Source: Macrocystis pyrifera (Eukaryota > Sar > Phaeophyceae > Laminariales > Laminariaceae). Taken from it: 64,000 bases of DNA. The stretch covers positions 5,830,667 to 5,894,666 of the forward strand of contig JASSKH010000020.1 of assembly GCA_031763025.1 (NCBI GenBank), given 5' to 3'. The position numbers and the translations under genes are program-made. Shown one piece after another: positions 10,955 to 60,020 of this stretch; within the stretch, counting starts at the first letter, position 1, and each line of letters starts with the position of its first letter. The notes below the pieces were generated by a model. It searched no databases. It saw only the letters and a list, made by a program, of their open reading frames with translations, and was not told the origin of the DNA.

Positions 10955-11053
10955 CGGGGGACCATAGTAAAGAGGACCGAATATTGTTGGTAAGAATATG
11001 TATATATAAAGTTTTGTGTGCGTACCGTAGGTCCTATTTAATAGGTTCCCCCG
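10955..11053 (+). mobile_element. MITE copy, 99 bp, locus A of unit 2 (uninterrupted)
   Basis: Terminal inverted repeats begin CGGGGGACCATAGTAA and end in the complement, with TA on each side (10953-10954 and 11054-11055). There is no coding capacity. It occupies the same locus as the interrupted MITEs at 29228 and 57292 and is therefore the empty site for both later insertions. Confidence 0.85.
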
Positions 11054-11403
11054 TAAATAGCTGTGGCATCAAGATCTCCCAAGATGATATCCTGCGTAAT
11101 AATATCTCAGTACGTACAGCAATCCTTCGTCGACGGGAGCATCAATCGTGATTCGTAGGATTGTTGATGCGAGACGATCCGATGCAATATATCAAGCTGG
11201 TTCACGCTCGCTTCCTTGCCAACTCATATTCTCGTTCGTCAGCCTTGTCGTTAAGTCTGCATACCCTCTATTGTTTCCGCCCTACGCGCGTGTGCTAGTT
11301 GGGAACATATTGTTGCAGCCCTTAAGCCGGACCTGAGACCGTGCTCTCACAGTGGCGTCGACCGCAGCACCCTCATGTACCACCTGGTATATACCTCGTA
11401 CTA

Positions 11404-11502: not shown

Positions 11503-13283
11503 TAATAGTACATGAATCATGAAACACTGGAGATAGACTACAGCAGTGCAAAAAAAAAAGCGTGTGCACTCCGGGTGTTGGTTTTCTTTCCTTGGTTCCC
11601 CTTGGTGTTTTTAGTTTGTTCTCGGGTTCTGACGAGGGTGTTTTCCGGTGATCGACGAGAGTAGCCTCATTTCTGCTTCGTTGTTTCTGGGGATATTATT
11701 TTGGGGTCGATCGACGTTGAATCTCATCGTGCACGTAAAAGCGTGTCGTCTCCTAAAAAATAGCTCGTAGCGAATATACTCCACCCGTAGCCGTTTCACC
11801 CCTCACCTTGGTAGCCCTACAGCTTTACGTCAGCATATGCTACTGTTTGTGCTGTCCTCGTACAAACGGTATCGTGTACAATAAATACCAAGTACGCGGT
11901 GGCATGTTATCTTTCTTGTCCCTGGATCGCGAGAAATGATCATGCACACCACTTTAAAATAAAGAATTCATTCAAATATCTCGATCTTCAGAGCCACTCA
12001 CTCGTTCATCTTAGTCACAGATAGTTCGTCCCGATAGAGACCAAGATGCCCTCACCTACCGAAGGTGATACCATATTACTGTACTCTCGGGTATCAGCTG
12101 CAACTCATTTGGTTCGTGTGTGTGTTTCAAAGCGTTCACATGGGGACGAGGTTTTTTTCATTCGAGTCGGCACCTTTCGTCGTATGTCCCTCGAAGTACG
12201 TGCTGACGTTGGCCACGACCGCTCTCAACGCATCATCGCACATACACACATGGAGGCACAGGACGTGTCAAAACGAAGAAATTAATGTGCATGCCTCGTA
12301 CAGCACTACGAGAATGTCTGACTCCTCAACCAGACATCGGGATAGCGAACGTACTACCACATGAATCATGCGGCAGAAGTGCCAAAGTAGATCAGTTGTG
12401 GTAGGCATCCATCCATGGAGGACGTGCCTCACCCCCACCGCGCACTAAATCTTTCGTTCCCTCCTTCCTCTTCACATCGAAGCGGCTGAAGTCGAGACAA
12501 GGCAAACCCCAGGTGCGTCTATTAATAGACTGCTGTTGTGCGCGGAGGTCAGGTGAGGGTATTCACGTGACGAAGAGATTTTTGTTCGTTGAGAGGGCAT
12601 TGACCGAAGGAAGCGGGCGTCGAGACTATATCCAAAGTAGGAGTTGCCCATACCACCCCCTCGTTAAACGTCATCACGGCCAGGCCCGAATATCATAGCG
12701 CAGACAGAAACCAAGCAGATAGACCACTGCTGCAAAACCTGTTAAGCAAACCTCCTCCGACCTCCTCTCGAAGGGTCAGATAGTCCCGTGGCGCGCAAAT
12801 GAATCGGTAACGCGGCCGTCTTACAAAGGGGATAATCAGCACTACACCCCCCCCTTCGATCATTACCGTTTTGTTCCGGAGAACAGGTGGGCCGCGGTCA
12901 CTCCCGATACCTACCGAGAGCGGGCGAGACGTGTACCTTGTAACTTTCCGCCACACGTCATCTGGAGGGATTTTCTGTGTTTGCCAACACAACTAATATT
13001 TATACCGTTTGCGCAGATTTCCGCAGGGTCTAAGAATTGTACCGGAATGGATGTTTAGCCAATCGATCCCGATCCCGCCGAGCCGGGCAGCCAAAATACC
13101 TTAAACAAGAACACGATAGCAAGAGTAGAGTATGTTGGCGCCTCGTAATAATTAAACACCAGACAACAAAAAGAGTAGGAAGCGTTGTCTCGAGCGATTG
13201 CGGTGCGTTCGGACGACGACGACTGCGCGAGCTGCGCCCGCACCTGTGCAGCATGACGATGATCTGGAGCAATTGGGCTATTA
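11503..13283. other. Unit 2 spacer between MITEs, no gene recognised
   Basis: About 1.8 kb repeated at 33762-35502 and 58188-59924. Candidate frames (for example 12046-12285) change reading between units through 1-bp indels in a GT-rich stretch near 12120, so they are unlikely to be proteins. No RNA gene seen. Confidence 0.6.
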
Positions 13284-13381
13284 CGGGGGACCATAGTAAC
13301 TAGGACCTACGGTACAGACAAAAACCTACATATTTCCCTATTGTTACTAACATTATTTGGTCCTACTTACTATGGCCGCTT
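13284..13381 (-). mobile_element. MITE copy with decayed end, locus B of unit 2
   Basis: Reverse orientation relative to copy A. The terminus near 13381 is degraded (GCCGCTTTACCG in place of the usual end). The same degraded end is seen at 60020 and 39170, so the decay predates unit duplication. This is the empty site for the 3.6-kb insertion at 35552-39117. Confidence 0.8.
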
Positions 13382-24202: not shown

Positions 24203-25711
24203 TCATCCCGAACCAGAACCGCCACCACCTCCGGCCCCCCCACGACCCCCACCTGGGCGGAGCACCAGAGCCCGCGACCTACCAGCCTGCGCCGCCGCGC
24301 CACCTCGCATTCCCCCAGCTGGTGCCGCCGATCCACCGTCGAAGAGAGCTGCAGGAGACGAGGCGTCGGCCGGGGTATTCGCATGCACGAATTTGCAGTC
24401 GGAGAACCGGCATTCGCCCGTGGATGAAAACATCCAGCACAGCGCGGCGTTCTTCTTTCTGGCCGGACCCATCTTGGCGGGGCCGAGGCTTTGGCTCCGC
24501 TTGGATGCCCCATCCCGGCTGTCGCGTGGAACTTGGAGACCTTCGACGAGCCTCAGAACGTCGCTACCGGACGAGCAAAAGGAGGGCGTGCGACTAAGCG
24601 CAGGGGCAGGCGGCGCGTCAAACACGGCGTTGAACTGCGGGGGAACAGTCAACGGACGATCTTGCTGGGCGAACCTCATGAGGTCGTTCACCCAAAGACG
24701 TAGGTCGTCGTTCACCATTTCGTTCGTAACAACCCGCGTCGCGGAGCCGGAAAGCAAAACGATGTTGCTGAAAGTGTGACTGCGAAGACCAGCAGTCGCG
24801 GATGTAAAAGAGGCGTCGACGGGTGCCAACCGGTCAAGGCACGCGCGGTCGTCGGCGACGTCAGCCGAGAGTCCAACTGTATGAACCGCCATAAGAGCCT
24901 GGCGCAAGAGGTCCAGGCGGTCCGCGACCATCACCAGGTGGTCGACCGGGCGTTCGGTACGTGGCCCATACGAGGCCACGTCAAAATTGCTGACGGCACG
25001 AAGCTGAACCGCCACCACCGCCGTAACATTGACGCCCTCACCCACGAACGACTGGATATCCGCGGCCGACTCGTCGAGGTTCGGGGGCAAGCGTCCCCGA
25101 AGCAGCCAATGTTTGCGAGACGACATTTTCTTCAACATGGCCGTGTCGTCAGTAAGCTGCGATTTCTATACCTGACGCTCCCTCGCGTCTCCGCTGTCCC
25201 GCAGAGAAGGCTCACGGTCGGAAACGTTGTCCACAAACTGCTGGGGGGGTACTTCGTTGTGGGCGATCTTGGATGCGCTGCTGGTGACGGCGTCCCGAAG
25301 GCCAGCCACAGACAGAAGCACGTTGTCCAGTGTAGATTTGACGCCGAGGATATCCGTATCTATGCGGGAAAACTCGGATGCCACCTGGTTCTGCCAATGC
25401 AGAATGTCATCCTTCGATACCTCTCCCCCCGATGCTGCCGGCATAGATGGAGGACCAGCCGCAGTCGCAGTGGTAGCAGCAGCAGCAGCAGCGTTGGCCT
25501 GGCGAGCGGCCGCAGCAGCGTCTTTGACCTGGCGAGCCTCGGCCTCGGCTCTCCCAGCACGGCCTGCGTCGACCTCCGCTTGCAAAGCAGCTACAGCAGC
25601 ATGAGCATTCGCCTCAGCTTGTGTTTGCGCAGCAAACAACGCAGCCTGCGCCTCGCGCGCAGCAGTAGCCGCGTTGGCCGTGGCCTGCGGCGACTTGCTC
25701 TCGCCGGACAT
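24203..25711 (-). pseudogene. gag-like gene remnant, copy 2
   Basis: The N-terminal Ala-rich helix is intact (QVKDAAAAARQANAAAAAA). The central region and a complete C-x8-C-x4-C-x3-H finger (CWMFSSTGECRFSDCKFVH) are present. One in-frame TAG follows RERQV near 25166, where copy 1 has a Gln codon (RHIQKSQ); copy 3 shares the TAG. Apart from that codon the frame is open for about 500 residues, so this is the best-preserved gag. The finger suggests RNA binding, as in other gag proteins. Confidence 0.82.
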
Positions 25712-28700
25712 CCTGAACTCAAACTAGTCTGTATCACACCTTGGACCTGTAGCTTTGCCTCTGCTCCACTGCACTGTTACGTGTAGGTTGCGGCTACGTA
25801 CCAGACAAGGTGTGTGGATCAAGGGCCACGATCCATGCTACCGTGAATCACCGCAGTCATCTGATTGGCTAAACTTCTTACGTACGTACAAAATTCACAT
25901 TCTCTCATTCTTCCGAGAATACTCTGCATTATCTCTGCGCTGAAACTCTCAATAATTTTGAAATCGCCCGTTGGTATTATCAACTTCACTCAGCAGCAGC
26001 AGATACAGCAGCAGATATAGCAGCTGCAACGCACGTCTGTCGAGCTGTCGAGCGTCATACATGTTTCACCCGTGAGCCACCACACACCTCACACCGAGCA
26101 CGTACGTGAACACGAAACTGGCTCCCTCGGTCCGTCTACCTCTGCATACTGCTTCTACCTGGCCAATAGAAGCAGTAGTAGATGGATGCCCTCAACCGTA
26201 TATAATACGTAGCCTGTAAATTATACAAAATCATCAGTGTAGTCGTATTAGTATAGTAGTATCAGGTAGTTTGTGGCGTGCATGCTGCTTCTACCTTTAC
26301 TACAGTACATCATCTATCTGCGTAGTAGTTGTAGTGGTGTGCATTAGCAGTAACAGTATTATAGTAGTCATGCCCCATCTCATGGTACCGCTTGCTTGGT
26401 ACGTCGCCGTTGTATCGAAGTTATAGCATTATAAGAACAACAGTAGTATTATAGTAGGTCTTGTACTGTAGTGTAAAATTTATTCATGCTGCTTCTACCT
26501 GTACTGCGTCTACGTATTCCTGGTGGTGTATATATAATAGTAACAGTATTATATATAACAGTCATGCCCCAATCCATGGTATCGCGAGGTTATTTGACCT
26601 TTCTGAGGTTGTCTGTATATTGTGTGAGCGTTTGGTCAGCATGAGTACTTGGTAGTAGTATAGTTAGCAGTCGTAGTAGTAGTAGTAGTAGTACTGCTGT
26701 AGTAGTAGTGTACTAGGCAGTATTTTGTAGAGTGTATGCTGCTGCAACCTGTACTACTACATCTGCGTAGTAGTGGTAGTGGTGTGTGGTGACGGTATAT
26801 ATAGTAGTCAACCCGTGCTACCGCGTGCATATAGTAGTAGTGTGGTGATCACCACAGGAAGAGTAGTACTTAGTTCCTGCCGACTAGTATTAATAATTAT
26901 TACTATTTCCTTCGAGCAACACGCTAACCCATGGCTCCCGTTTCCGCCAAGAGCAGCTATACCGGTGTTACTTGTGACTCCCTTTTCGCCCTGCGACGCC
27001 CCCGGGATTTCACGTTACCCACATCCCGAAGGGGAATCTTGTATTACTTTGTACCAAATGAACTTTTTTTTACCGAATACTTTACTTTTCTCGTCCGGCC
27101 GCGGGTCTTCTCTCGCACTCTAGGCTGCGTGACACACAGGAAGCCCGCGTGTACACCACGGCGCAAGTGCGAGCCCCGCCTGAGGTCCGTGGCGCGTGCT
27201 CTGGGCCTCCGAAGTCGAGAATTCTGGCAAATAACTACGGGGAGTCATTCCGATCTGCTAGAGCCAAGCAGGACAATGGAGACCCCACAAGTTTTAATAT
27301 TTTTGCCTGCTGCTGGCTACTGCTGTATCATGTCTGATCACACCGTCCCTTGAGCTCTCTGCAGAGGCAGCCACGGCACAGCAACAGTCGTTCATCAAGC
27401 TCTCCCTTTCGTGACGGCCACAGACAGGGCATTTTTTTGTGTGTGTGGGCCGTGATTCCAGTCGACCTAGGAAGTAGGAACGAACGCATACATAATCTCG
27501 AGAAAGGTGCAACTATTTGGATGCTGCGCAGGGGCAGGACGATTCGTACGAACTTCTTCCGTATTGCAAAAGCAACGCCCAGCCACGGTGCGCACTACAA
27601 CAGCAGTAGCAGTACAACAGCAGTGTTCGAATAGTATGTGTGTGTGCAGTGTTCACCAGGTCGAGCAACCGAGTATTCGTGGTCTCGTGTTCTTTTTATC
27701 GGTGCAATAGGCTGGGAAGCCTACCCGTCGTGGCCAGCAGTCAACAATAATCCCGCACGAGCACGAGAATTTCCTCTGCCGAAATTCCTCTGCGTTGAAA
27801 ATCTCAATAATTTTGAAATCACCCGTTTTTATTACCAACCTCACTCAGCAGCAGCAGATAGATACGACAGCAGCAGATACAGCAGCAGGGACAGCAGCAG
27901 CCATACACGTCTGTCGAGCTGTCGAGCGTCATACATGTTTCACCGGTGAGCCCTTTGACGTACACCACATACCTCACACCGAGCACGTACGTGCAAACGA
28001 AACTGGCTCCCTCGGTCCGTCTGCCTCTGCATGCTGCTTCTACCTGGCCAATAGAAGCAGTAGTAGATAGATGCCCTCAACCGTATATAATACGTAGCCT
28101 GTGCATTTTACAAAATCATCAGTATAATAGTCGTAGTAGTATAGTATCAGGTAGTTTGTGGCGTGCATGCTACTTCTACCTTTACTACAGTACATCAGAT
28201 TATGTCTGCGTAGTAGTAGTGGTGTACATTAACAGTAACAGTATAGTAGTCATGCCCCCAGCTCATGGTACCGCTTGCATGCTACGTCACCGTTGTATCG
28301 AAATTTTTGTATTATTGGAACAACAGTAGTACTAATAGTAGGTATTATTGTTATGCTGGCCATCCAACAACCTGTGGTGCTGTTCTAAAAGGGACTAACA
28401 GAAAGTGAAGAACACTCCAGAACAAAAGCGCGCAGTACCAGCAGTAGTAGGTATATTGTAGTGTAACATTTATTCATGCTTCTACCTGTACTGCATCCAT
28501 CTACGTATTTCTGGTGATGGTGTATATATAATAGCAACAGTATTACATATAGCAGTCATGCCCCAATCCATGGAACCGCGTGGTTATTTGACCTCTCTGA
28601 GGTTGTCTGTATATTGTATGAGCATTTGGTCAGCAGTAGCATTAGTATTAGTAGTAGTATAGTTAGTAGTCGTAGTAGTAGTACTACTACTGCTGTAGTA

Positions 28701-29227: not shown

Positions 29228-29241
29228 CGGGGGGCCATAGT

Positions 29242-29578
29242 GCCGGCGTCCCCGGTGCCTTGGTAGGTGGTCCGCGTACCTATCAAGATCAATTTCGTGG
29301 GTTCAAGTCTCACCGCGTGCATGCTCGTAGGGGCTTTTTCTTGCATAAAAGAGATTGATTATTAGCGGAAAGCGCGAGAGCGTGAGTTAGCTATTCGATG
29401 ACAATCGACGAGCAGTGGGAATGCTGAGCCCTGTGCGCGATAAAAAATAAAGGCACGAACCGGGGGGGAGAAGGGAAGACACCTGTGACCACGGCTTGTC
29501 CAGAAGGTCGTCGAGGGTAAAATCTCTTACGAATTAGGCTGGAAAGTGAAAGTGATGAGTAAAAAAAAAAAAAAAAAA
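29242..29578 (+). mobile_element. tRNA-headed SINE, copy 1
   Basis: About 337 bp ending in an 18-A tail (29561-29578). Its first 85 bp contain A-box-like TGCCTTGGTAGG and B-box-like GGTTCAAGTCT promoter elements, and a T-arm that folds (GTGGG, loop, CTCAC). The acceptor stem does not pair, so it is tRNA-derived and not a tRNA gene. It splits the MITE after CCATAGT. The only visible target duplication is 2 bp (GT). The same insertion is at 57306-57646 and absent at 10967. Confidence 0.8.
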
Positions 29579-30552
29579 TGTAAATAGGACCAAATATTGT
29601 TGGTAAGAATAGGTAAATACAAGGCTTTCCTTCGGAGTGGGTATTCCGTCGTTTCGTGTACATATAACTGCAATTAATTGGCGACATAGCCCAAAGCCAA
29701 CCAAACTAAATGTATTTGTGTAAGAAACGGTGAAGGATGTAATAATCGCGTTTATTTATGAATGTAATGTGAAACGAAAGATCGGGTGACGCAAGAGTAA
29801 GAATGACATTCGTCTAATAATAAGAACATATTTCATCAGTGTGGGGAGAGAGTGGAGTAGTGCTGGGCATGTGGATGATATACAACATACAGGCTGTTGT
29901 TTAAAGGAAGGTTTGGCACAGGAGAGAAAGCAGCAGTGCCGGCAACGACAACGGTTATGGAAATGTTGTATAGTTTGTTGCTGGGCGGCCGCGATTTCGA
30001 TGTAGCCAGCATAGGAGTTTGGATGAGACATGATATATGTGTAAATAGTCTTCCAGGACGCTGTAGTAACGAGGCGGGAGGCCCAGAATGTGGATATGTT
30101 CGCTGTTGAACCCGTTGGATATGTGTAGGAAGAAATAATCATGATTTTGGGAAATGTGGGAAACAAATTGTTTCCTTTCGTTCGTCCTGGATGGTGACAA
30201 TCTGCTTGGCGTACTGCTTCGGAATTCCGCGAAGCCCTGGAGCAGGCGAAATGGAAGGGAGTCTTTTTGCGCTTGATGACGATGTCTCCGTCTTTGGTGG
30301 TGGAGTCCGTCAGGCGGCAGTTGTAGCACTTGCCACGGACCTGGTCGAAGTAAACATATAGGGTGCGCGGGGCGGGAGTGGCGTGCAGGGAATGGCGGGG
30401 GAGGGGGGGGGGCAGAGTTCATTATTTGTACTACTCTACAGCGGCACAACAGCAGCACGTAATCGCTTGCTATACGACGGCAGCAGCAGCAGCAGAAGCA
30501 ACAAGTACGTAATTTCATTGACGATACAGAAATATGTAGACACACAAGTGTA

Positions 30553-30890
30553 CCGGCGTCCCCGGTGGCTTGGTAGGTGGTCCGCGTGCCTATCAAGATC
30601 AATTTCGTGGGTTCAAATCTCACCGAGTGCATGCTCGTAGGGACTTTTTCTTGCATAAAAAATTGATAAGCGGAAAGCGCGAGAGCGTGAGTTAGCTACA
30701 TTCGATGAAAATCGATGAGCAGTGGGAATGCTGAACCCTATGCGCGACAAAAAATAAAGGCAAGTAAGTACCGGGGGGGAAAAGGGACGACACCTGTGAC
30801 CACGGCTTGTCCAGAAGATCGTCGAGGGTAAAACCTCCTACGAGTGGGCTGGAAAGTAAAAGTGATGATGAAAAAAAAAAAAAAAAAAAA
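30553..30890 (+). mobile_element. tRNA-headed SINE, copy 2 (inside the 3.6-kb element)
   Basis: Same family, with A-box TGGCTTGGTAGG, B-box GGTTCAAATCT and a 20-A tail (30871-30890). GTAC lies on both sides. The other 3.6-kb copy has the uninterrupted site near 38170-38185, so it inserted after the two copies separated. Confidence 0.85.
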
Positions 30891-31129
30891 GTACAGTACA
30901 CACACAAATCACGTCCAGCATGATGTACGGCAACAACGCAGCAGCACCACAAAAAAAATCACTGACGATACAGAAATATATACACACGCACAAGTTTAAG
31001 TGTAATAGCTACACAAATCATGTCCAGCATGATGTACGGCAACAACTCAGCAGCGCCACAAAACGACCACGAAACACAATTATCGAGTACATACAAACAT
31101 TCAGTGAATATTGCGGCAACACTAAAAGC

Positions 31130-31133
<4 letters not shown>

Positions 31134-31178
<45 letters not shown>
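31134..31178 (+). repeat. (CAG)15 microsatellite
   Basis: Fifteen uninterrupted CAG units. The homologous segment in the other copy (about 37880-37935 as CTG) is interrupted by CTT, with the longest pure run about five units. Expansion or interruption loss in this copy is likely. Confidence 0.9.
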
Positions 31179-31183
<5 letters not shown>

Positions 31184-33307
31184 GCAACGGATCGCCACAG
31201 CGTTGGCAGCAGCAGCATAGCAGCGATATGAAAAGAAGGGAGAAAAAAAGTATGTACCCCGAGGCCGTCCGAAAAGTATTTTCGGTACCTCACTATAGAC
31301 CCACCTCCGCATGCTGTACGGCAACAACGCAGCAGCAGCATAGCAACAACACGAAATACGAGAAAAAGTAGTACGTACGCAAAATGCAGGAGCAAAACGA
31401 CCAAAATATTTTTTTTACGTATAAAAAAAAACATTTGGGTACAAAAATGGCCAATAAAAACAATAATCCGCGTTGGCAGCAACCGCATACGTAGCAACGA
31501 TATGAAAATAAGGAAGAAAAAAAGTATGTACCCTGGTATGCCGCAATCGCAAAACCTACGGAATTTCATTGACGATACCGAAATATGTACGCACAAAAGT
31601 ACAGCATGATGTACGGCAACAAAAAACGCAGCAGCACCACAGCAGCATAGCAACGATATATATGAAAATAACCAAGCCAAAAACGAGAAATTGCAGTACG
31701 TACGCAAAATGCAGGAGCAAAACGACAAAAATATTTTTTCACGTATCAACAGGAACCATTTGGGTACAAAAACTACCAAGAAAAACAGTAATCCGAGTAC
31801 ATACGAACATTCAGTGGATATTGCGGCAGCACATTAGCAGCAGCAGCAGCTACAGCAGCTACAGCATTAGCAGCAGCAGAAGCTGCAACGAATCGCCGCA
31901 GCGTTGGCAGCAGCAGCAGCACCAGCAGCAGCAGCATAGCAACGATATGAAAATAAGGAAGAAAAAAAGCATGTACCCTGGTATGCCGCCATCGCAAAAC
32001 CTACGGAATTGACGATCCGAAAATATGTACGCTTCCAGCATGATGCACGGCAACAACGCAGCAGCACTACATACAGCAGCAGCAGCAATTGCACAGGAGC
32101 AGCAGGTGAACAGCACGGCAACAACGCAGCAGCACTGCAGCAGCAGCGAGTGCACAGGAGAAGCAGGTGCACAGCAGCAGCAGCACTCATGGCGTGGCGC
32201 TGACAGCAGCAGCAGCAGCAGCGGCAGCCGAAAACGAGCAAAAAATGAGTACGTGGGGTCACCAAAACATGTACACACAGAAATCGTGTGCATGCACCGA
32301 AAATGCACCACAGTAGCAGCAGCACTCACGTCGTTCGGTGCAGCGGTGATGGCGACAGCTGAATCCTCCGTTCCTTCGTTCACGTCCCGCAAACAGTTGT
32401 GCATGTGCGCGTTCGCGTGCACTGTGCGTAAGAGGAGCCGACGCAACGCACGAAGGGGAAAGAACGAGCATGGATGAGTCAAAAAAAAAAAAAACGCTTT
32501 GACGTAGGATTGCATGCAAAAAGGCAATTGAAAACCCCAAAAAAACGTACTGGCAACAAACAGCATGCACAATAGACGTAAGACACTCACCACTGTCAGC
32601 AGTCTCGAGGGAGTACGAGACAGTCCCTTCCTTGATCGGGCGAGCACAGAACTCGCAGTCGGTTGCCCTGTCAGGATGATCCCGCCACCACGCACGTGAG
32701 ATCCTTGCAGGTGGCGAAGGCCACGTTTTTGCCACCAGGCGCGGAGTTCTTGACCAAGTGCTGATCCGTGCACTGGTCGCAAACAGCCGGCACCAGGTCG
32801 GTCTTTGTCGTTGCCGCTCTCTTGCCAGAGGGCGAGGACCACGCACCTCTCGACGAGGGGGAGGTGAGCTTAGGGGGCGTGGAGAAGTGAGAGGCGGGGG
32901 TTGCAGCACCAGCAGGTTCGCCACCGACAGCAGCAGCTTGGCTGCCGACAGCTGCACCTATCTATGCCGTTCGTCGAAGGCGAGACGGCTCTTTTAGGCG
33001 CCGTGCGAAGAGCTGTCTTTGGTTGGCAGTTTGCGGAAGAAGAAAGAAGAAAAGGTCGTTTGGCTGTTCGGCTGTTTCAAAGAAGGAAGAAAGGTTGTTT
33101 GTGGCATTTCGGCTGTTTCAAAGAAGGAAGAAAGGTTGTTTGGCTGTTCGGCTGTTTCAAAGAAGAAGGGTTGTTTGCGAAGAGCTGTCTATCAGTCGGT
33201 CTGTCTGCCAAGAGCTAGCAAGTGACAACGACCTCAAAAATCGTAATTATAGTTGTATCTATACAAGTTTTGTGTGTACCGTAGGTCCTATTTACTATGG
33301 TCCCCCG

Positions 33308-35502
33308 TAAATAGCTGTAGCATCAAAATCTCCCAAGGTGCTATCTTGCGTAATAAGATCTCAGTACGTACAACAATCCTTCGTCGACGGGAGCATCAAT
33401 CGTCATTCGTAGCATTGTTGATGCGAGACGATCCGATGCAATATATCAAGCTGGTTCACGCTCGCTTCCTTAGCAACTCATATTCTCGTTCGTCAGCCTT
33501 GTCGTTAAGTCTGTATACCCTCTATTGTTTCCGCCCTACGCGCGTGCTGTACTGTAGTTAGGAACAAATTGCTGCAGCCCTCAAGCCGGACCTGAGACCG
33601 TGCTCTCAAAGTGGCGTCGACCGCAGCACTCTCACATGCCATCTGGCATATACCTCGTATTACGGGGGACCATAGTAAATAGGACCAAATATTGTTAGTA
33701 GAGGTGGGGAAATGTATAGGTTTTTGTGTCTACCATAGGTCCTATTTACTATGGTCCCCCGTAATAGTACATGAAATCATGAAACACTTGAGATAGACTA
33801 CAGCAGTGCAAAAAAAAAGCGTGTGCACTCCGGGTGTTGGTTTTCTTTTCTTGGTTCCCCTTGGTGTTTTTAGTTTGTTCTCGGGTTCTGACGAGGGTGT
33901 TTCCCGGTGATCGACGAGAGTAGCCTCATTTCTGCTTCGTTGTTTCTGGAGATATTATTTTGGGGTCGATCGACGTTGAATCTCATCGTGCACGTAAAAG
34001 CGTGTCGTCTCCTAAAAAATAGCTCGTAGCAAGTATACTCCCCGGTAGCCGTTTCACCCCTTACCTTGGTAACCCTACAGCTTTACGTCAGCATACGCTA
34101 CTGTTTATGTTGTCCTCGTACAAACGGTATCGTGTACAATACCAAGCACGCGGTGGCATATTATCTCGTCCCTGGATCGCGAGAAATCATTATGTACACC
34201 ACTTTAAAGTGAAGAATTCATTCAAATATCTCGATCTTCAGAGCCACTCACTCGTTCATCTTAGTTAGGCAGTTCGTCCCGATAGAGACCAAGATGCCCT
34301 TACCTACAGCAGGTGATACCATATTACTGTACTCTCGGGTATCAGCTGCAACTCATTTGGTTCGTGTTTGTGGTTTCAAAGCGTTCACATGGGGAAAGGG
34401 TTTTTTTCATTCGAGTCGGCACCTTTCGTCGCATGTCCTTCGAAGTACGCGCTGACGTTGGCCACGACCGCTCCCAACGCATCATGACACATACACACAT
34501 GGAGGCACAGAACGTGTCAAAACGAAGAAATTAATGTGCATGCCTCATATAGCGCTACAAGAATGTCTGATTCATCAACCAGACGTCGGGATGGCGACCG
34601 TACTACCACATGAATCATGCGGCAGAAGTGCCAAAGTAGATCAGTTGTGGTAGGCTTCCATCCATGGAGGACGTGCCTCACCCCCACCGCGCATAAACCT
34701 TTCGTTCCCTCCTTCCTCTTCACATCGAAGCGGCTGAAATCTAGACAAGGCAAACCCAAGGTGCGTCTATTAATAGACTGCTGTTGTGCGCGGAGGTCAG
34801 GTGAGGGCATTCACGTGACGAAGAGATTTTTGTTCATTGAGAGGGAATTGACTGAAGGAAGCGGGCGTCGAGAGTATATTCAAAGTAGGAGTTGCGCGTA
34901 CCACCCTCTCGTTAAACGTCATCACGGCCAGGCGTGAACATCATAGCGCGGACAGAAACCAAGCAGATAGACTACTGCTGCAAAACCTGTTAAGCAAACC
35001 TCCTCCGAAGGGTCAGATTACGCGGCCGTCTTACAAAGGGGATATTCAGCACTACCCCCCCCCCCCCCCCCGATCATTACCGTTTTGTTCCGGAGAACAG
35101 GTGGGCCGCGGTCGCTCTCGATACCTACCGAGAGAGAGCGAGACGTGTACCTTGTAACTTTCCGCCACACGTCATCTGGGGGGATTTTCTGTGTTTGCCA
35201 ACACAACTAATATTTATACCGTTTGCGCAGATTTCCGCAGGGTCTAAGAATTGTACCGGAATGGATGTTTAGCCAATCGATCCCGATCCCGCCGAGCCGG
35301 GCAGCCAAAATACCTTAAACAATAACACGATAGCAAGAGTAGAGTAGAGTATGTTGGGGCCGCGTAATAATTAAACACCAGACAACAAAAAGAGTAGGAA
35401 GCGTTGTCTCGAGCGATTGCGGTGCGTTCGGACGACGACGACTGCGCGAGCTGCGCCCGCACCCGTGCAGCATGACGATGATCTGGAACAATTGGGCTAT
35501 TA
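33308..35502. other. Unit 3 spacer between the two 3.6-kb elements
   Basis: Ordinary unit sequence equivalent to 11054-13283 and 57734-59924, left between the two insertions. It contains one intact MITE and no recognised gene. A C-run lies at 35056-35071. Confidence 0.7.
33663..33761 (+). mobile_element. MITE copy, 99 bp, near-consensus
   Basis: Both ends are intact (CGGGGGACCATAGTAAATAG and its complement) with TA on each side. It is one of the best-preserved copies and could serve as the family reference. Confidence 0.88.
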
Positions 35503-35829
35503 CGGGGGACCATAGTAACTAGGACCTACGGTACAGACAAGAACCTATATAGATACAACTATAATTACGATTTTTGAGGTCGTTGTCACTTGCTAGCTCT
35601 TGGCAGACAGACCGACTGATAGACAGCTCTTCGCAAACAGCCCTTCTTCTTTGAAACAGCCGAACAGCCAGCCAAACAACCTTTCTTCCTTCTTTGAAAC
35701 AGCCGAACAGCCAAACAACCTTTCTTCTTTCTTCTTCCGCAAACTGCCAACCAATAGACAGCTCTTCGCACGGCGCCTAAAAGTGACGTCTCGCCTTCGA
35801 CGAACGGCATAGATAGGTGCAGCTGTCGG

Positions 35830-36186
35830 CGGTCAAGCTGCTGCTGTCGGTGGCGAACCTGCTGGTGCTGCAACCCCTGCCTCTCCCTTCTCCACGCCCC
35901 CTAAGCTCACCTCCCCCTCGTCGAGAGGCGCGTGGTCCTCGCCCTCTGGCAAGAGAGCGGCAACGACAAAGACCGACCTGGTGCCGGCTGTTGTTTGCGA
36001 CCAGTGCACGGACCAGCACTTGGTCAAGAACTCCGCGCCTGGTGGCAAAAACGTGGCCTTCGCCACCTGCAAGGATCTCACGTGCGTGGTGGCGGGATCG
36101 TCCTGACAGGGCAACCGACTGCGAGTTATATGCTCGCCCGATCAAGGAAGGGACTGTCTCGTACTCCCTCGAGACTGCTGACAGTG
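35830..36186 (+). pseudogene. Cys-rich exon remnant of the 3.6-kb element
   Basis: One frame gives a Pro/Ser-rich stretch then VVCDQCTDQHLVKNSAPGG and FATCKDLTCVV before a stop. A second frame continues ATDCE(F/L)(C/Y)ARPIKEG and SYSLETADSG up to a GTGAGT donor-like site at 36187. Paired cysteines suggest a zinc-binding domain. The left copy keeps DCEFCARPIKEG where this one reads DCELYARPIKEG. The frame shift between blocks means either a small intron or decay. I do not recognise the family. Confidence 0.45.
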
Positions 36187-37391
36187 GTGAGTGTCTTATG
36201 TCTATTGTGCATGCTGTATGTTGCCAGTACGTTTTTTTGGGGGTTTCAATTGCCTTTTTGCATACCAAACTTAAGTCAAAGCGTTTATTATTTTTTTTAC
36301 TCATCCATGCTCGTTCTTTCCCCGTCGTGCGTTGCGTCGGCTCCTCTTACACACAGTGCACGCGAACGCGCACATGCACAACTGTTTGTGGGACGTGAAC
36401 GAAGGAACGGAGGATTCAGCTGTCGCCGTCACCGCTGCACCGAACGACGTGAGTGCTACTGCTACTGTGGTGCATTTTCGGTGCATGCACACGACTTCTG
36501 TGTGTACATGTTTGGGTGACCCCACATGCTCATTTTGCTCGTTTTCGGCTGCCGCTGCTGCTGCTGCTGCTGTCAACGCCACGCCATGAGTGCTGCTGCT
36601 GCTGCTGTACACCTGCTTCTCCTGTGCACTCGCTGCTGCTGTAGTGCTGCTGCGTTGTTGCCGTGCTGTGCACCTGCTGCTCCTGTGCACTTGCTGCTGC
36701 TGTATGTAGTGCTGCTGCGTTGTTGCCGTGCATCATGCTGGAAGCGTACATATTTTCGGATCGTCAATTCCGTAGGTTTTGCGATGGCGGCATACCAGGG
36801 TACATGCTTTTTTTCTTCCTTATTTTCATATCGTTGCTATGCTGCTGCTGCCAACGCTGTGGCGATTCGTTGCAGCTTCTGCTGCTGCTAGTGCTGTAGC
36901 TGCTTCTGCTGCTGCTGCTGCTAATGTGCTGCCGCGATATCCACTGAATGTTCGTATGTACTCGGATTACTGTTTTTCTTGGTCGTTTTTGTACCCAAAT
37001 GGTTCCTTTTGATACGTGAAAAAATATTTTTTGTCGTTTTGCTCCTGCATTTTGCGTACGTACTGCATTTTCTCGTTTTTGGCTTGGTTATTTTCGTATA
37101 TATCGTTGCTATGCTGCTGCTGTGGTGCTGCTGCGTTGTTGCCGTACATCATGCTGCACTTGTGTGTGTACATATTTCGGTATCGTCAATGAAATTCGTA
37201 GGTTTTGCGATTGCGGCATACCAGGGTACATACTTTTTTTCTTCCTTATTTTCATATCGTTGCTATGCCGCTGCTGCCAACGCGGATTATTGTTTTTATT
37301 GGCCATTTTGGTCCCCAAATGGTTTTTTTGATACGTAAAAAAAATATTTTGGTCGTTTTGCTCCTGCATTTTGCGTACATACTACTTTTTC

Positions 37392-37700
37392 TGTGAGATG
37401 GGTGTATCTCAGGTTCGACCTGGGTCTGCAGCAAGCTTCTCTTTCGGTAAGGTGTAGCGTGGAGGACACGCCAGGTATAGGTGAGGCTCGGCACGGTCAG
37501 CCGAGCAGAAGTGATCATGAAGCATGACGCAAGTCATCTCACATGACAGTCATCAGCAATTACTTGGTGATGGAGGCTGGTAATTCCCCGCCTCAACTAT
37601 CATCAGATCTACGGAGATCTGCGGCCACTTTTAGTACAAGTGTCAATATCCACGATAACGGATGAACCACTGACTGTAGAGTAACGACCTGAGACTCACA
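37392..37700. mobile_element. Solo-LTR-like insert, 309 bp
   Basis: Begins TGTGAG and ends CTCACA, flanked by TTTC on both sides (37388-37391 and 37701-37704). The other element copy shows the uninterrupted site near 31360. TG...CA ends and a 4- to 5-bp duplication are typical of a solitary LTR. No internal retroelement is present. A small TIR transposon is the alternative. Confidence 0.65.
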
Positions 37701-37895
37701 TTTCTCGTATTTCGTATTGTTGCTATGCTGCTGCTGCGTTGTTGCCGTACAGCATGCGGAGGTGGGTCTATAGTGAGGTACCACAAATACTTTTTTCGGA
37801 CGGCCTCGGGGTACATACTTTTTTTCTTTCTCCCTTCTTTTTTCATATCGATGCTATGCTGCTGCTGCCAACGATGTGGCGATCCGTTGCTGCTT

Positions 37896-37926
<31 letters not shown>

Positions 37927-38407
37927 TGCTCTGCTTTTAGTGCTGCCGCAATATTCACTGGATGTTTTTTTATGTACTCGGATAATTGTGTTTCGTGGTC
38001 GTTTTGTGGCGCTGCTGCGTTGTTGCCGTACATCATGCTGGACATGATTTGTGAGTCTATTATTACACTTAAACTTGTGCGTGTGTACATATTTCTCTAT
38101 CGTCAATGATTTTTTTTGTGGTGCTGTTGCGTTGTTGCCGTACATCATGCTGGACGTGATTTGTGTGTGTACTGTACTACACTTGTGTGTGTACATATTT
38201 CTGTATCGTCAAGGAAATTACGTACTTGCTGCTTCTGCTTCTGCTGCTGCTGCTGCCGTCGTATAGCAAGCGATTACATACTGCTGTTGTGCCGCTGTAG
38301 AGTAGTACAAATAATGAACTCTGCTTCCCCCCCACCCCTTCCCCCTCCCCCGCCATCCCTGCACGCCACTCCCGCCCCGCGCACCCTATGTGTTTACTTC
38401 GACCAGG

Positions 38408-38640
38408 TCCGTGGCAAGTGCTACAACTGCCGCCTGACGGACTCCACCATCAAAGACGCAGACATCATCATCAAGCGCAAAAAGACTCCCTTCCATTTCG
38501 CCTGCTCCACGGCTTCGCGGAATTCCGAAGCAGTACGCCAAGCAGATTGTCGTCATCCAGGACGAACGAAAGGAAACAAATTGTTTCCCACATTTCCCAA
38601 AATCACGATTATTTCTTCCTACACATAATCAACGGGTTCA
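38408..38640 (+). pseudogene. CxxC exon remnant of the 3.6-kb element
   Basis: Preceded by a 90-nt pyrimidine-rich tract without AG ending CGACCAG, a strong acceptor-like context. Translation after it reads VRGKCYNCRLTDSTIKDADI then KRKKTPFHFAC. Downstream, other frames hold protein-like text (INGFNCEQIHFLGLPPRYY; YADYIEMAATQQLNNI) up to about 38780, so frameshifts or introns split the gene. Possibly the element's own protein. Family not recognised. Confidence 0.4.
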
Positions 38641-39194
38641 ACTGCGAACAGATCCACTTTCTGGGCCTCCCGCCTCGTTACTACAGCATCCTGGAAGACT
38701 ATTTACATATCATGTCTCATCCAAACTCCTATGCTGACTACATCGAAATGGCGGCCACCCAGCAACTAAACAACATTTCCATAACCGTTGTCGTTGCCGG
38801 CACTGCTGCTTTCTCTCCTGTCCCAAACCAACAGCCTGTATGTTGTATATCATCCACATGCCAAGCACTACTCCACTCTCTCCCCACACTGATGAAAGAT
38901 GTTATTCTTATTATTAGACGAATGTCATTCTTACTCTTGCGTCACCCGATCTTACGTTTCACATTGCATTCATAAATAAACGCGATTATTACATCCTTCA
39001 CCGTTTCTTACACAAATACATTTATTAATAGTTTGGTTGGCTTTGGGCTATGTCGCCAATCAATTGCAGTTATATGTACACGAAACGACGGAATACCCAC
39101 TCCGAAGGAAAGCCTTGTATTTCCCTATTGTTACTAACATTATTTGGTCTTATTTACTATGGCCGCTTTACCGTGGTGTGCACCCCTTTTATTA

Positions 39195-42840: not shown

Positions 42841-45800
42841 ATGCGGGCGGCTCTCGGGCTTTTGGTGGCGGGTCTGTCCGCTCAGGCGGTCGTCGGCAAG
42901 GTGAACAAACCTGCTGCTCTCGGTTTCTTCGCGAATATCCACCTATGCGATGAGTAGACCTGTGTGCCGGCAGGCTCTCACGACATACAACCATTCAATA
43001 AGAGTACCGTTGGCGAACTTGCTGGCTTTAGTCCGCAAGCCGTTAGCGAAGCCAGCAGATGGCCAGCGGGCTTGCCGACTTGACTCAGGCGAGCGAAGCA
43101 AGGCAAATCACCATTCCCCGGCCGGGAGAATCCCGCCCGAAAATAAACAAATGTAAGCCGCATTCAACAAGCCTTCCGACAAGTATGGAGACCTCAGATG
43201 TCCGATAGTCGGCACCTTGCGGAAATGACTAACTATTAGTATGACTAATATCTTCTGTATTTGGGGACTTGAGTCGTGCCGACCCACAGCTCTTCAGTAA
43301 TGAGACGTGCTCCGTAGGGGTAAACCTAATGTTTCGGAGGGTCTTCACTTGAGGGGGCGCTTTATGCCCCACCCAAAGCTTGATTTTGACTAAACGTCAT
43401 TTCAGGAAATGAAGGCGCTCCGCTGGTTGAGAAAATCTCGTTCGCTAAGATATCATGTCGTATGTAAACTATTTTTTTCTTCTGAAACACCAATGGGATT
43501 CCAACGGTTCTGAATGGTCCCTCAGTTTGGTATATTGCCCAGCCAGGCAGAAAGGTCTGGGCCCGAACGTATCCCCCTCCCTACCGCACTGTAGTGGCCC
43601 TTACCTCACTGCTGTAGTGATCCTTACCGCACTGCAATGGCGTGACTCGCACGCTGTATGCCTATCGCCTCTCCGCAGTCCTCCACCACCCCGATACATT
43701 ACCACGCCGGCCGATTGCTTTTTTTAAAATACCGCGGCCAACACATTTTCGTGAGAGGACCATAAACAACGTCAAAACCTACAATAGAACACGTCGTTCT
43801 GTGTTTTCTGTTCGTTTGTATGTGAATCTGCTTCATTTACACCTGTGTGGCACATAATTTACAGCCGGATCTGCCTCCAGTTGTCGGGCCGTGCAGAGAT
43901 GTTCGGGCGAACAAATGCTGATACGCCTCGTCCATCCACCCTCCCGACGAGCAAGTTGTTTGTGCGGTCTGCGGACACAACTATGTTGGAGAGTCTCGCT
44001 CGAAACCCAGAGATAGCGACTGATTTTGGCCTTCATAGCGACTGTTTTTGGGCCTTCATTGTTGACTGTTTTTTTTTTTTCGCCTTCATCGACCGTTAGT
44101 GTGAGCCCGAAGTAACACGAGTAGGACCATGCCTCCAACCAAAGCAGTGGTCGAGACTACTGCAGTCCGTCATTTCATGCCGCCACTTCTTCCGTCGAAA
44201 GTTCGAAAATTGCCCATTGTAGCCGTGTTTTTACTGCTGTGAAGTCCACACCCCGTCCACGTACGACAGTTTCCCACAGACTGCATCTGCCGTAGCCTTC
44301 CTCACTCCCCCCCCCCCCCCCCCCCCCCCCCCGAAATCGTATCCCCGCGTAGCTGTCGTACTTTATCCCCCAAGACTGCGTTCGGTTTGCAACAAAGCAC
44401 TGCCCCATAATCTCTCCCATTCACCCCCCCCCCCCAAACAAACTTGTCCCCGCTGTATATCGTACTTTGGCCATCAGGTAGATGGCTCCCACGACAAGGA
44501 CAGCGTTGTCCACTACGAAGACGTCGTGTCAGGGACCTACCACCGGAACCTGCAGGGGCGCGGCGGGCCACCTGGACCCCCCGGGGCGGGGGCACCCCGA
44601 CCGGAAGGACCACCCCCGCCGGTAGGTGGTGTCCCGTCGATCTTCAGGTTCTCCGGAGTCGTCCTCAATATCGCTCCGGGTTCCACCGTTACCATCAGGT
44701 GCATCGTAACGGTAACAAGCCCCGACGGGACTACTGAACAGTACGAGGAGGATGTTGTAGTTGGCCCTGACGGCGCCGGGAACTTGGAAATCGGTACGAA
44801 TGTGTGCGACGGCTGCACCGCAACAGTGGTAGCGGGGGAGTGCCTCGCCGGAGACTGCGACGGATACGACGAGGACGAAACCAACCAAAACCTTGTCGCT
44901 AACGTGAGTGCGGCTCGGTTCAGCGGAGTGATGCTCAGATTGGAAAGGCCGCTTGTCTCTATTTTGTATCCGGGCCGGGTCGAGGGTCGAGGCCACCAAC
45001 CCAGCCCGCACACATTATTCAAACCACATTGCCCCAACGGAACAGCCAACCTAAGAGTTTCAACATTGACAGTCGAGTACCGGTGTAATTTGATTCAGAT
45101 GTGTTGCTTTTCGGCTATTTTCATGCTCGTTACCATATGCTAGGATTTTTGCCCCGAATATACTTCAAGTAGACCGTCGTGTATCACTTTCCCCACTGTT
45201 CTCGTTCCCTTCCACCAACACACCTCAAACCAACACTGCACCCTCGGTGCCAACTCAAACTGCCCACCTGAATACTGCCACACCCCCACTCTTCCTCACC
45301 CGTTCCCGCCTTACCACCTCCTTGCCCCACTTGTACACCTTTCGCCGTGCCGAACATCAATATCAACCAGCTGGTCGGTGATCCCCACATGACCGGCCTG
45401 TTGGGCCAGAGAATCGACTGGGCCGGAGAGGACGGCGCTTGGTACTGCCTCATCTCTAACGGGCCCGACTTCCACCTCAACGTGCGCCTTACCGCCCCCA
45501 TGCCGGTGGAGTTCCCCGAAAGGCAGCTCGTCTCCGCGGTGAGCATCATCACCGACAACGGCCTCCACTCCCTGCTCGTCGAGGTGAAGGACCCCTACAG
45601 CACGGTCACCGAAGGCTGCCCGGCGGCCCCCTGCTTGGCCGACGGAGGCCTCCGTATCCAGGTGGACGAGACTGACTCCGACGCCCTTCAATCGCCCGCC
45701 GAGAACGTAGTCCTGTCGGGCGAGCCAGGGTCATCCGATGTCATTGTCTCTGCCGCCAACCTACCCGCGGAGTGCCGGCCGTTCGGCGGGGACCGTATCT

Positions 45801-57291: not shown

Positions 57292-57733
57292 CGGGGGGCC
57301 ATAGTGCCGGCGTCCGCGGTGGCTTGGTAGGTGGTCCGTGTACCTATCAAGATCAATTTCGTGGGTTCAAGTCTCACCGAGTGCATGCTCGTAGGGGCTT
57401 TTTCTTGCATAAAAGAGATTGATTATTAGCGGAAAGCGCGAGAGCGTGAGTTAGCTACATTCGATGACAATCGACGAGCAGTGGGAATGCTGAGCCCTGT
57501 GCGCGATAAAAAATAAAGGCACGTACCGGGGGGGAGAAGGGAAGACACCTGTGACCACGGCTTGTCCAGAAGGTCGTCGAGGGTAAAATCTCTCACGAAT
57601 TAGGCTGGAAAGTGAAAGTGATGAGTAAAAAAAAAAAAAAAAAAAATGTAAATAGGACCAAATATTGTTGGTAAGAATAGGTAAATATACAAGTTTTGTG
57701 TGTACCGTAGGTCCTATTTACTATGGTCCCCCG
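57292..57733 (+). mobile_element. MITE at locus A of unit 4, interrupted by SINE only
   Basis: MITE pieces 57292-57305 and 57647-57733 join into a standard copy. The second piece is uninterrupted at GTAAATATACAAG, the site filled by the 3.6-kb element in unit 3. Confidence 0.85.
57306..57646 (+). mobile_element. tRNA-headed SINE, copy 3
   Basis: Orthologue of 29242-29578 at the same MITE position. A-box TGGCTTGGTAGG, B-box GGTTCAAGTCT, A20 tail at 57627-57646. Confidence 0.82.
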
Positions 57734-59924
57734 TAAATAGCTGTGGCATCAAGATCTCGCAAGATGCTATCCTGTGTAATAAGATCTCATTACGTACAAC
57801 AATCCTTCGTCGACGGGAGCATCAATCGTCATTCGTAGCATTGTTGATGCGAGACGATCCGATGCAATATATCAAGCTGGTTCACGCTCGCTTCCTTGCC
57901 AACTCATATTCTCGTTCGTCAGCCTTGTCGTTAAGTCTGTATACCCTCTATTGTTTCCGCCCTACGCGCTTGCTGTACTGTAGTTAGGAACAAATTGCTG
58001 CAGCCCTCAAGCCGGACCTGAGACCGTGCTCTCAAAGTGGCGTCGACCGCAGCACTCTCACATGCCATCTGGTGTATACCTCGTATTACGGGGGACCATA
58101 GTAAATAGGACCAAATATTGTTAGTAGAGGTGGGGAAATGTATAGGTTTTTGTGTCTACCATAGGTCCTATTTACTATGGTCCCCCGTAATAGTACATGA
58201 AATCATGAAACACTTGAGATAGACTACAGCAGTGCAAAACAAAAGCGTGTGCACTCCGGGTGTTGGTTTTCTTTTCTTGGTTCCCCTTGGTGTTTTTAGT
58301 TTGTTCTCGGGTTCTGACGAGGGTGTTTCCCGGTGATCGACGAGAGTAGCCTCATTTCTGCTTCGTTGTTTCTGGAGATATTATTTTGGGGTCGATCGAC
58401 GTTGAATCTCATCGTGCACGTAAAAGCGTGTCGTCTCCTAAAAAATAGCTCGTAGCAAGTATACTCCACCCGTAGCCGTTTCACCCCTTACCTTGGTAAC
58501 CCTACAGCTTTACGTCAGCATACGTTACTGTTTATGTTGTCCTCGTACAAACGGTATCGTGTACAATACCAAGCACGCGGTGGCATATTATCTCGTCCCT
58601 GGATCGCGAGAAATCATTATGCACACCACTTTAAAGTGAAGAATTCATTCAAATATCTCGATCTTCAGAGCCACTCACTCGTTCATCTTAGTTAGGTAGT
58701 TCGTCCCGATAGAGACCAAGATGCCCTCACCTACAGCAGGTGATACCATATTACTGTACTCTCGGGTATCAGCTGCAACTCATTTGGTTCGTGTTTGTGG
58801 TTTCAAAGCGTTCACATGGGGACGTGATTTTCTTCATTCGAGTCGGCACCTTTCGTCGCATGTCCTTCGAAGTACGCGCTGACGTTGGCCACGACCGCTC
58901 CCAACGCATCATGACACATACACACATGGAGGCACATAACGTGTCAAAACGAAAAAATTAATGTGCATGCCTCATATAGCGCTACAAGAATGTCTGATTC
59001 ATCAACCAGACGTCGGGATGGCGACCGTACTACCACATGAATCATGCGGCAGAAGTGCCAAAGTAGATCAGTTGTGGTAGGCATCCATCCATGGAGGACG
59101 TGCCTCACCCCCCCACCGCGCATAAACCTTTCGTTCCCTCCTTCCTCTTCACATCGAAGCGGCTGAAATCTAGACAAGGCAAACCCAAGGTGCGTCTATT
59201 AATAGACTGCTGTTGTGCGCGGAGGTCAGGTGAGGGCATTCACGTGGCGGAGAGATTTTTGTTCATTGAGAGGGAATTGACTGAAGGAAGCGGGCGTCGA
59301 AAGTATATTCAAAGTAGGAGTTGCGCGTACCACCCTCTCGTTAAACGTCATCACGGCCAGGCGTGAACATCATAGCGCGGACAGAAACCAAGCAGATAGA
59401 CTACTGCTGCAAAACCTGTTAAGCAAACCTCCTCCGAAGGGTCAGATTACGCGGCCGTCTTACAAAGGGGATATTCAGCACTACCCCCCTCCCCCCCGAT
59501 CATTACCGTTTTGTTCCGGAGAACAGGTGGGCCGCGGTCGCTCTCGATACCTACCGAGAGAGAGCGAGACGTGTACCTTGTAACTTTCCGCCACATGTCA
59601 TCTGGGGGGATTTTCTGTGTTTGCCAACACAACTAATATTTACACCGTTTGCGCAGATTTCCGCAGGGTCTAAGAATTGTACCGGAATGGATGTTTAGAC
59701 AATCGATCCCGATCCCGCCGAGCCGGGCAGCCAAAATACCTTAAACAAGAACACGATAGAAAGAGTAGAGTATGTTGGCGCCTCGTAATAACTAAACACC
59801 AGACAACAAAAAGAGTAGGAAGCGTTGTCTCGAGCGATTGCGGTGCGTTCGGACGACGACGACTGCGCGAGCTGCGCCCGCACCCCGTGCAGCATGACGA
59901 TGATCTGGAACAATTGGGCTATTA
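57734..59924. other. Unit 4 spacer, no gene recognised
   Basis: Equivalent to 11054-13283 and 33308-35502, with one MITE inside. No gene seen. Confidence 0.6.
58089..58187 (+). mobile_element. MITE copy, 99 bp, near-consensus
   Basis: Orthologue of 33663-33761 and nearly identical to it, with TA on both sides. Confidence 0.88.
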
Positions 59925-60020
59925 CGGGGGACCATAGTAACTAGGACCTACGGTACAGACAAGAACCTATATATTTCCCTATTGTTACTAACATTTTTTG
60001 GTCTTATTTACTATGGCCGC
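59925..60020 (-). mobile_element. MITE copy, locus B of unit 4 (uninterrupted)
   Basis: Reverse orientation. Contains AACCTATATATTTCCC intact, the empty site for the insertion at 35552-39117. Degraded right end shared with units 2 and 3. Confidence 0.82.

What the first reader, a model, noticed from the sequence alone, without database searches (positions are those of the whole stretch)
29620..39117. Two 3.6-kb elements at the same position and orientation in two MITEs
Both elements lie between GG(T/G)AAATA and TATA in MITE coordinates, each with a TA repeat, in two MITEs 2.3 kb apart that are empty in units 2 and 4. Explanations: an element that targets the MITE centre; ectopic conversion copying one insertion into the other MITE; or the long form being the parent from which the MITE arose by internal deletion. 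None matches a standard element class I recognise.
Basis: partly seen in the sequence, partly recalled or inferred. Interest (0 to 1): 0.85.

Follow-up and report, generated by a model that had tools for sequence, protein, structure and literature searches.

The report
TA-seeking kelp element landing in MITEs
Two copies of a common giant-kelp mobile element jumped independently into the TA-rich middle of two small repeats; the element seeks TA runs at many places, so the striking match of place and direction is best explained by target preference, though the enzyme that moves it was not found.

Summary
Two elements (29620-33261, +; 35550-39117, inverted) sit at the same point and in the same direction within two MITEs of one unit; the matching MITEs of the two other units are empty. 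The genome is giant kelp. The family is large: 1,634 places carry its end with the flanking TA, control 0. Of 39 loci fetched, 6 are in the MITE; most others lie in (TA)n runs or other TA sites, some against another copy, so the element is not the MITE's parent. The two copies are 96.4% identical and not sisters, so neither was copied from the other. The target is one-sided: 32 of 32 solo sites read TA^T, and at 24 non-MITE sites the CAAGG side is 92% A+T, the other 64%. That accounts for one direction in MITEs (8 of 8) and for head-to-tail stacks. No TIRs, TA at both ends, no recognised intact gene: it looks non-autonomous. A Helitron-like single-strand mechanism fits the insertion pattern best, but the end motifs are not canonical, and no autonomous partner could be sought because the genome search went down.

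The parts
29620..33261 (+). Element copy E1 (CAAGG end at 29620, GTATCTA end at 33261), in MITE 1
   Evidence: Junctions; empty counterparts; same boundaries in 36 of 39 fetched loci
35550..39117 (-). Element copy E2 (CAAGG end at 39117), in MITE 2, same direction in MITE coordinates
29583..29619 (+). Left half of host MITE 1 next to E1, ending GGTAAATA (its outer end lies beyond the insertion at 29240-29582)
33262..33316 (+). Right half of host MITE 1, starting TACAAGTTTT
39118..39166 (-). Left half of host MITE 2 (in MITE direction), ending GGGAAATA
35493..35549 (-). Right half of host MITE 2, starting TATAGGTTC
29240..29582 (+). 343-bp SINE-like repeat with poly(A) tail inserted in host MITE 1; the SINE reading is by eye and recall, Rfam and ARAGORN found no tRNA
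30550..30890 (+). Second copy of the same SINE-like repeat, inside E1; present at this place in E1 and 26 of the 35 long fetched copies, absent from E2 and the other 9
57648..57741 (+). Empty counterpart of MITE 1; insertion point about 57687/57688
59915..60020 (-). Empty counterpart of MITE 2; insertion point at about 59972
10962..11061 (+). Empty counterpart of MITE 1 in the first unit
13274..13379 (-). Empty counterpart of MITE 2 in the first unit
29756..30418 (-). Open frame holding a Cys-rich stretch (KCYNCRLTDS...FHFAC), part of a broken gene-like remnant on the minus strand of the element
   Evidence: for E1; the matching frames of copy L045 gave no Pfam family above cut-off

Best explanation
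E1 and E2 are two independent insertions of one abundant, apparently non-autonomous, TIR-less mobile element of giant kelp. SHOWN: it inserts at TA^T, and the DNA on the side that receives its CAAGG end is an AT-rich, often (TA)n, tract, while the other side soon becomes more ordinary sequence. The MITE centre (AAATA^TATAG) is such a site in one direction only, which explains why both copies have the same place and direction. The element's own GTATCTA end followed by T is another such site, which explains why copies are found head-to-tail with one TA between. INFERRED: the element moves through a single-strand, Helitron-like (HUH nuclease) mechanism supplied in trans. Read on the minus strand it is 5'-TAGATACAAC...AAGGAAAGCCTTG-3', placed between A and T, with the AT-rich flank at its 3' end, no TIRs, and a gene-like remnant inside. 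The enzyme and its autonomous partner are not identified.
For: Family size: 803+831 places match the 20-base end pattern that includes the flanking TA (up to 2 mismatches), reversed-pattern control 0. Precise ends: 36 of 39 fetched loci have both ends (one of them, L024, with an internal deletion); L016 is cut by a retroelement, L034 and L038 lack the CAAGG end. Target: T at -2, A at -1 and T at +1 in 32 of 32 solo sites, 31 if the duplicate pair L015/L020 counts once. One-sidedness: 24 non-MITE solos have A+T 0.92 left against 0.64 right; left higher in 21, right in 0, p = 6e-5; of 15 with six or more TA units the left run is longer in 12, the right in 1, p = 0.003. Direction in MITEs 8 of 8, p = 0.008. 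MITE as an ordinary TA target: 13 of 199 ATATA(T/C) runs in the non-element DNA at hand lie in MITEs; 6 of 30 solos do (p = 0.012), 4 of 28 without E1 and E2 (p = 0.11). Stacking: in the first 100 of 1,634 ends listed, 11 neighbouring pairs within 7 kb are direct and 1 opposite, about 1 same-strand pair expected. Independent events. Helitron-like side: the Helitron Helraiser inserts at AT and prefers AT-rich DNA most towards its 3' flank (PMC4778049, passages); 13 Helitron families are reported in a brown alga (PMC12477816, passages). No TIR: best inverted match of E2's 200-base ends scores 23, maximum of 200 shuffles 24.
Against: The ends are TA(G/A)...CTTG, not the canonical TC...CTRR. The 3' hairpin is weak: the last 30 bases give p about 0.04, but 20, 45 and 85 bases give 0.17, 0.16 and 0.21. 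No Helitron2-type inverted repeats were found in E2. A 2-bp TA duplication by another kind of enzyme gives the same junctions, because the target is itself TA. The search for a RepHel gene did not complete. The long (TA)n on one side could have grown after insertion. One of five tested stacks (L043) is closest to its own neighbour, so not every stack need be a fresh insertion. L010 has the longer uninterrupted TA run on the right.
Confidence: 0.5

Rival explanations
1. A serine-recombinase element of IS607 type: a circle recombines into the genome at a 2-bp TA core, leaving TA at each end and allowing tandem integration at the element's own junction.
For: No TIRs and no longer duplication; TA at both ends; head-to-tail stacks with one TA. 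IS607 lacks TIRs and TSDs (PMC6188088, abstract start in the search listing) and IS607-type elements occur in eukaryotes (PMC3627910, passages).
Against: A dimeric enzyme on a palindromic TA core gives no obvious reason for a target that is AT-rich on one side only and for 8 of 8 one-way MITE insertions. No search for a recombinase gene was run.
Confidence: 0.2
2. A TA-microsatellite-targeting Mutator-like element (like Micron, MuTAnT or SaTar elements of plants), moved by a MULE transposase.
For: Those plant elements sit in (TA)n runs, and SaTar elements stack without nesting (PMC5907723, abstract, passages and one section; PMC4486113, passages).
Against: Those families mostly have TIRs and, where it can be seen, 8-11-bp duplications; here no TIR and at most TA in the two window sites, where the empty sequence is known.
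Confidence: 0.1
3. A Crypton-type tyrosine-recombinase element.
For: No TIRs; Cryptons are reported from oomycetes and a diatom (PMC3212892, passages).
Against: Those passages give 4-6-bp terminal direct repeats; here the shared stretch is only TA.
Confidence: 0.07
4. A retroposed (LINE-dependent) element whose (TA)n is a 3' tail, read on the minus strand.
For: In the direction of the gene remnant the (TA)n follows the end, in variable number.
Against: Frequent loss of the far end is expected but not seen: of the 39 loci, chosen by a match to the CAAGG-end 1,201 bases, all but L016 (cut by another element) keep the far end. The seven MITE insertions whose CAAGG side is visible have exactly one TA there. 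The remnant looks unspliced (GT...AG by eye).
Confidence: 0.05
5. The 3.6-kb form is the parent from which the MITE arose, or one MITE insertion was copied into the other by conversion.
For: Same place and direction in two MITEs.
Against: Most fetched copies have precise ends outside MITEs; E1 and E2 are far apart in the family; MITE-borne copies are scattered through the tree (by eye).
Confidence: 0.02

Closest known systems
Helitrons (RepHel rolling-circle transposons) and their non-autonomous derivatives
   Same: Insertion between A and T, no TIRs, no certain duplication, AT-rich flank strongest at the 3' side, gene-like remnant carried
   Different: Ends TA(G/A)...CTTG instead of TC...CTRR; hairpin weak; specific for TA runs; no RepHel partner shown
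Micron / MuTAnT / TAFTA / SaTar elements of plants
   Same: Home to (TA)n or other microsatellites; SaTar elements stack in non-nested arrays
   Different: Those are Mutator-like, mostly with TIRs, with 8-11-bp duplications at some sites; here neither was found
IS607-type elements
   Same: No TIRs, 2-bp junction, tandem joining possible
   Different: One-sided AT-rich target and fixed direction; enzyme not found
Helentron / HINE / DINE-1 (Helitron2)
   Same: Non-autonomous members can be abundant, no clear duplication, A+T-biased targets (PMC4067079, passages)
   Different: Those prefer T-runs and have subterminal inverted repeats with hairpins; not found in E2

Membership tests
Helitron (canonical) | Insertion between A and T | tested here: met
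   32 of 32 solo sites have A at -1 and T at +1
Helitron (canonical) | No terminal inverted repeats | tested here: met
   E2 only: best inverted match of the 200-base ends (23) is within the shuffled range (maximum 24)
Helitron (canonical) | No target-site duplication | tested here: inconclusive
   At TA targets a carried TA and a duplicated TA look the same
Helitron (canonical) | 5'-TC and CTRR-3' ends | tested here: not met
   Ends are TA(G/A) and CTTG
Helitron (canonical) | Hairpin near the 3' end | tested here: inconclusive
   p about 0.04, 0.17, 0.16 and 0.21 for the last 30, 20, 45 and 85 bases of E2
Helitron (canonical) | RepHel protein in an autonomous partner with the same ends | not tested
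   Search for PF14214 did not complete
Helitron2 / Helentron | Asymmetric terminal inverted repeats with hairpins at both ends | tested here: not met
   E2 only: no inverted match above the shuffled maximum; minus-strand 5' end folds no better than shuffled
IS607 type | No TIR, 2-bp junction sequence | tested here: met
IS607 type | Serine recombinase gene | not tested
   No such search was run; the three open-frame fragments of the element that I scanned match no Pfam family above cut-off
TA-targeting MULE (Micron, MuTAnT, SaTar) | Terminal inverted repeats | tested here: not met
   E2 only
TA-targeting MULE (Micron, MuTAnT, SaTar) | 8-11-bp duplication at non-microsatellite sites | tested here: not met
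   The two window sites with known empty sequence show TA at most
TA-targeting MULE (Micron, MuTAnT, SaTar) | Placement in (TA)n and non-nested stacking | tested here: met
Crypton | 4-6-bp terminal direct repeats | tested here: not met
   Shared stretch is TA only
LINE/SINE | Frequent loss of the far end and a longer duplication | tested here: not met
   38 of 39 loci keep the far end; window sites show TA at most

The most novel reading that the evidence does not exclude
A new kind of eukaryotic HUH or other single-strand transposition unit, with neither Helitron ends nor TIRs, whose transposase reads an AT-rich (TA)n tract on one side of the cut only, so that direction is fixed by the target and copies stack head-to-tail on one another's ends.
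Probability: 0.2. Interest if true: 0.65.

Novelty: new variant of a known kind. Interest (0 to 1): 0.4.

Why it matters
With 1,634 ends found, the family would make up about 1% of the genome if most copies are near 3.5 kb (inference). Its one-sided TA target gives a simple rule that predicts where and in which direction copies land, including inside another mobile element and on their own ends. If the mechanism is Helitron-like, it would show that this class can work with non-canonical ends that motif-based finders would miss; a 2025 survey says that most brown-algal TE families had remained unclassified (PMC12477816, passages).

Tried and rejected
Parenthood of the MITE and conversion between the two MITEs: rejected by flanks, identity and tree. 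Coding element: open frames with Cys-rich stretches exist, but the frames appear to break in the four copies printed, three fragments gave no Pfam family above cut-off (best E 0.098 and 0.19), and variation shows no third-position excess in three stretches (the script phased the third stretch two bases off, so I read its columns as third 47, first 42, second 64 changes). TIR search: nothing above shuffled, E2 only. tRNA origin of the 340-bp insert: by eye it has box A and box B like stretches (recalled motifs), but Rfam and ARAGORN found nothing. Stacks as recent duplications: five of seven stacks tested; the neighbour is not the closest in L019, L033 and L036, second closest in L044, closest in L043. 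A longer, possibly autonomous copy at L016: it is a copy cut by a retroelement with a gag-like frame. MITE preference beyond TA preference: suggestive only, and not significant once E1 and E2, which brought me here, are left out.
Full report
THE OBSERVATION. E1 (29620-33261, +) and E2 (35550-39117, -) interrupt two MITEs at the same point and in the same direction in MITE coordinates. The left junction is GG(T/G)AAATA|CAAGGCTTTCC and the right junction GTTGTATCTA|TA(C/T)A. The corresponding MITEs in the units at 11-13 kb and 57-60 kb are empty. On the + strand the two elements point in opposite directions, because the MITEs do. The window lies in a 537-Mb assembly of 223 contigs; size, contig number and an N50 equal to the length of contig C196 (13,669,674 bases) match the giant kelp Macrocystis pyrifera reference (PMC10498591, passages).

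THE FAMILY. The pattern TACAAGGCTTTCCTTCGGAG, which includes the flanking TA, occurs 803 times forward and 831 times reverse with up to two mismatches; the reversed control occurs 0 times. I fetched 39 loci, the best places for the first 1,201 bases of E1 (that search scored only 40 candidates), so they lean towards copies like E1. Thirty-six of 39 have both ends, one of them (L024) with a large internal deletion; L034 and L038 lack the CAAGG end; L016 is cut by a retroelement. L015 and L020 are the same copy and nearly the same flanks on two small contigs.

NOT THE MITE'S PARENT, NOT A CONVERSION. MITE flanks occur at E1, E2, L029, L032, L035, L042, on the left of L017 and on the right of L043; the other fetched copies lie in (TA)n runs, SINE-like tails, other sequence with TA, or against another copy. 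E1 and E2 are 96.4% identical, the lowest value for E1 among 36 others; E1's nearest copy is L009 (99.3%), in a (TA)n run. E2 lacks the 340-bp insert that E1 shares with 26 of the 35 long fetched copies. On a midpoint-rooted tree of 37 copies the common ancestor of E1 and E2 includes all 37; E2 has a long branch, so the root is uncertain, but the two are not sisters. They are separate arrivals.

THE TARGET RULE. In 32 of 32 solo insertions the bases are T, A before the CAAGG end and T after the final TA. The surroundings are one-sided: 24 non-MITE solos (L020 left out as a duplicate, L024 left out because it was not in the set of long copies) have 92% A+T in the 20 bases on the CAAGG side and 64% on the other; the left is higher in 21, the right in none, three are even. 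Among 15 with six or more TA units in all, the left run is longer in 12, the right in 1 (L010), two are even by the rule used. L014 and L025 share their right flank and may not be independent. In the MITE the AT-rich side is the AAATA side, and the 8 MITE insertions follow it (p = 0.008). ATATA(T/C) runs in the non-element DNA at hand number 199, 13 of them in MITEs. Six of 30 solos in MITEs is more than expected (p = 0.012), but 4 of 28 without E1 and E2 is not (p = 0.11). So the MITE is mainly a ready-made TA target.

STACKS. In L016, L017, L019, L036, L043 and L044 two copies abut head-to-tail with a single TA between them, and L033 has close neighbours on both sides. In the first 100 of the 1,634 listed ends, 11 neighbouring pairs within 7 kb point the same way and 1 the opposite way; about 1 same-way pair is expected. 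In five stacks tested (L016 and L017 not tested) the neighbour is not the closest copy in three, second closest in L044 and closest in L043. The element's end GTATCTA followed by T meets the target rule, so later copies can land on it.

CONTENT. The minus strand holds two Cys-rich stretches separated by repeat-rich sequence with splice-like borders seen by eye, but the frames appear to break in the four copies printed, no Pfam family matches the three fragments scanned above cut-off, and variation has no third-position excess (one stretch was phased two bases off in the script and is read accordingly). I take the element to be non-autonomous with a gene-like remnant.

MECHANISM. Shown: independent insertions, TA^T, one-sided target, no TIRs in E2, at most TA duplicated. 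Inferred: a single-strand, Helitron-like mechanism. Read on the minus strand the element is TAGATACAAC...AAGGAAAGCCTTG between A and T, with the AT-rich flank at its 3' end; the reconstructed Helitron Helraiser inserts at AT and prefers AT-rich DNA most towards its 3' flank (PMC4778049, passages). Against this stand the non-canonical ends, a weak hairpin (p about 0.04, 0.17, 0.16 and 0.21 for 30, 20, 45 and 85 bases) and the lack of an identified enzyme. Symmetric enzymes (serine recombinase, DDE) would need an extra reason for the one-sidedness. I put the Helitron-like reading at 0.5.

COMPARISON. Plant elements that home to (TA)n and stack (Micron, MuTAnT, SaTar) are Mutator-like, mostly with TIRs; this element shares the habit, not the structure. 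Helitron2 elements have hairpins and asymmetric inverted repeats at both ends (PMC3627910, passages), not found here. Cryptons carry 4-6-bp direct repeats, not found here. I therefore do not file it as a member of any of these. In the held library, a search for kelp with Helitron and non-autonomous gave one paper, seen only in the listing, and a search for brown alga with Helitron and transposable element gave 22, of which 8 were listed and the Ectocarpus survey was read in passages; I saw no description of this element, but those searches were narrow and supplements were not read.

LIMITS. From then on the genome search gave no answer, so the size range of the whole family, the MITE copy number, an unbiased sample of flanks and the autonomous partner remain open.

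Noticed in passing
window 2725-10786, 18990-27060, 45072-53119; 3-2689 inverted: The window holds repeated units with a period of about 26 kb and an inverted piece at its left end; open frames include a GDPH-bearing stretch (vWF type D-like, from memory) and a reverse-transcriptase-like stretch (by eye).
   Followed up: no
window 29240-29582 and 30550-30890; tails at L012, L018, L028, L046: A 340-bp SINE-like repeat with poly(A) tail recurs; the same insertion inside the element marks a subfamily (E1 and 26 of 35 long fetched copies).
   Followed up: partly
L016 about 3800-6199 (locus reverse-complemented): A retroelement with a zinc-knuckle gag-like frame (by eye) interrupts an element copy.
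   Followed up: partly
L009, L022, L027, L028 flanks: A palindromic motif like TATACCAGGTATA recurs near several insertion sites (by eye).
   Followed up: no
L015 (C113) and L020 (C1): Two small contigs carry the same copy with nearly the same flanks, perhaps a duplicated or allelic assembly piece.
   Followed up: no
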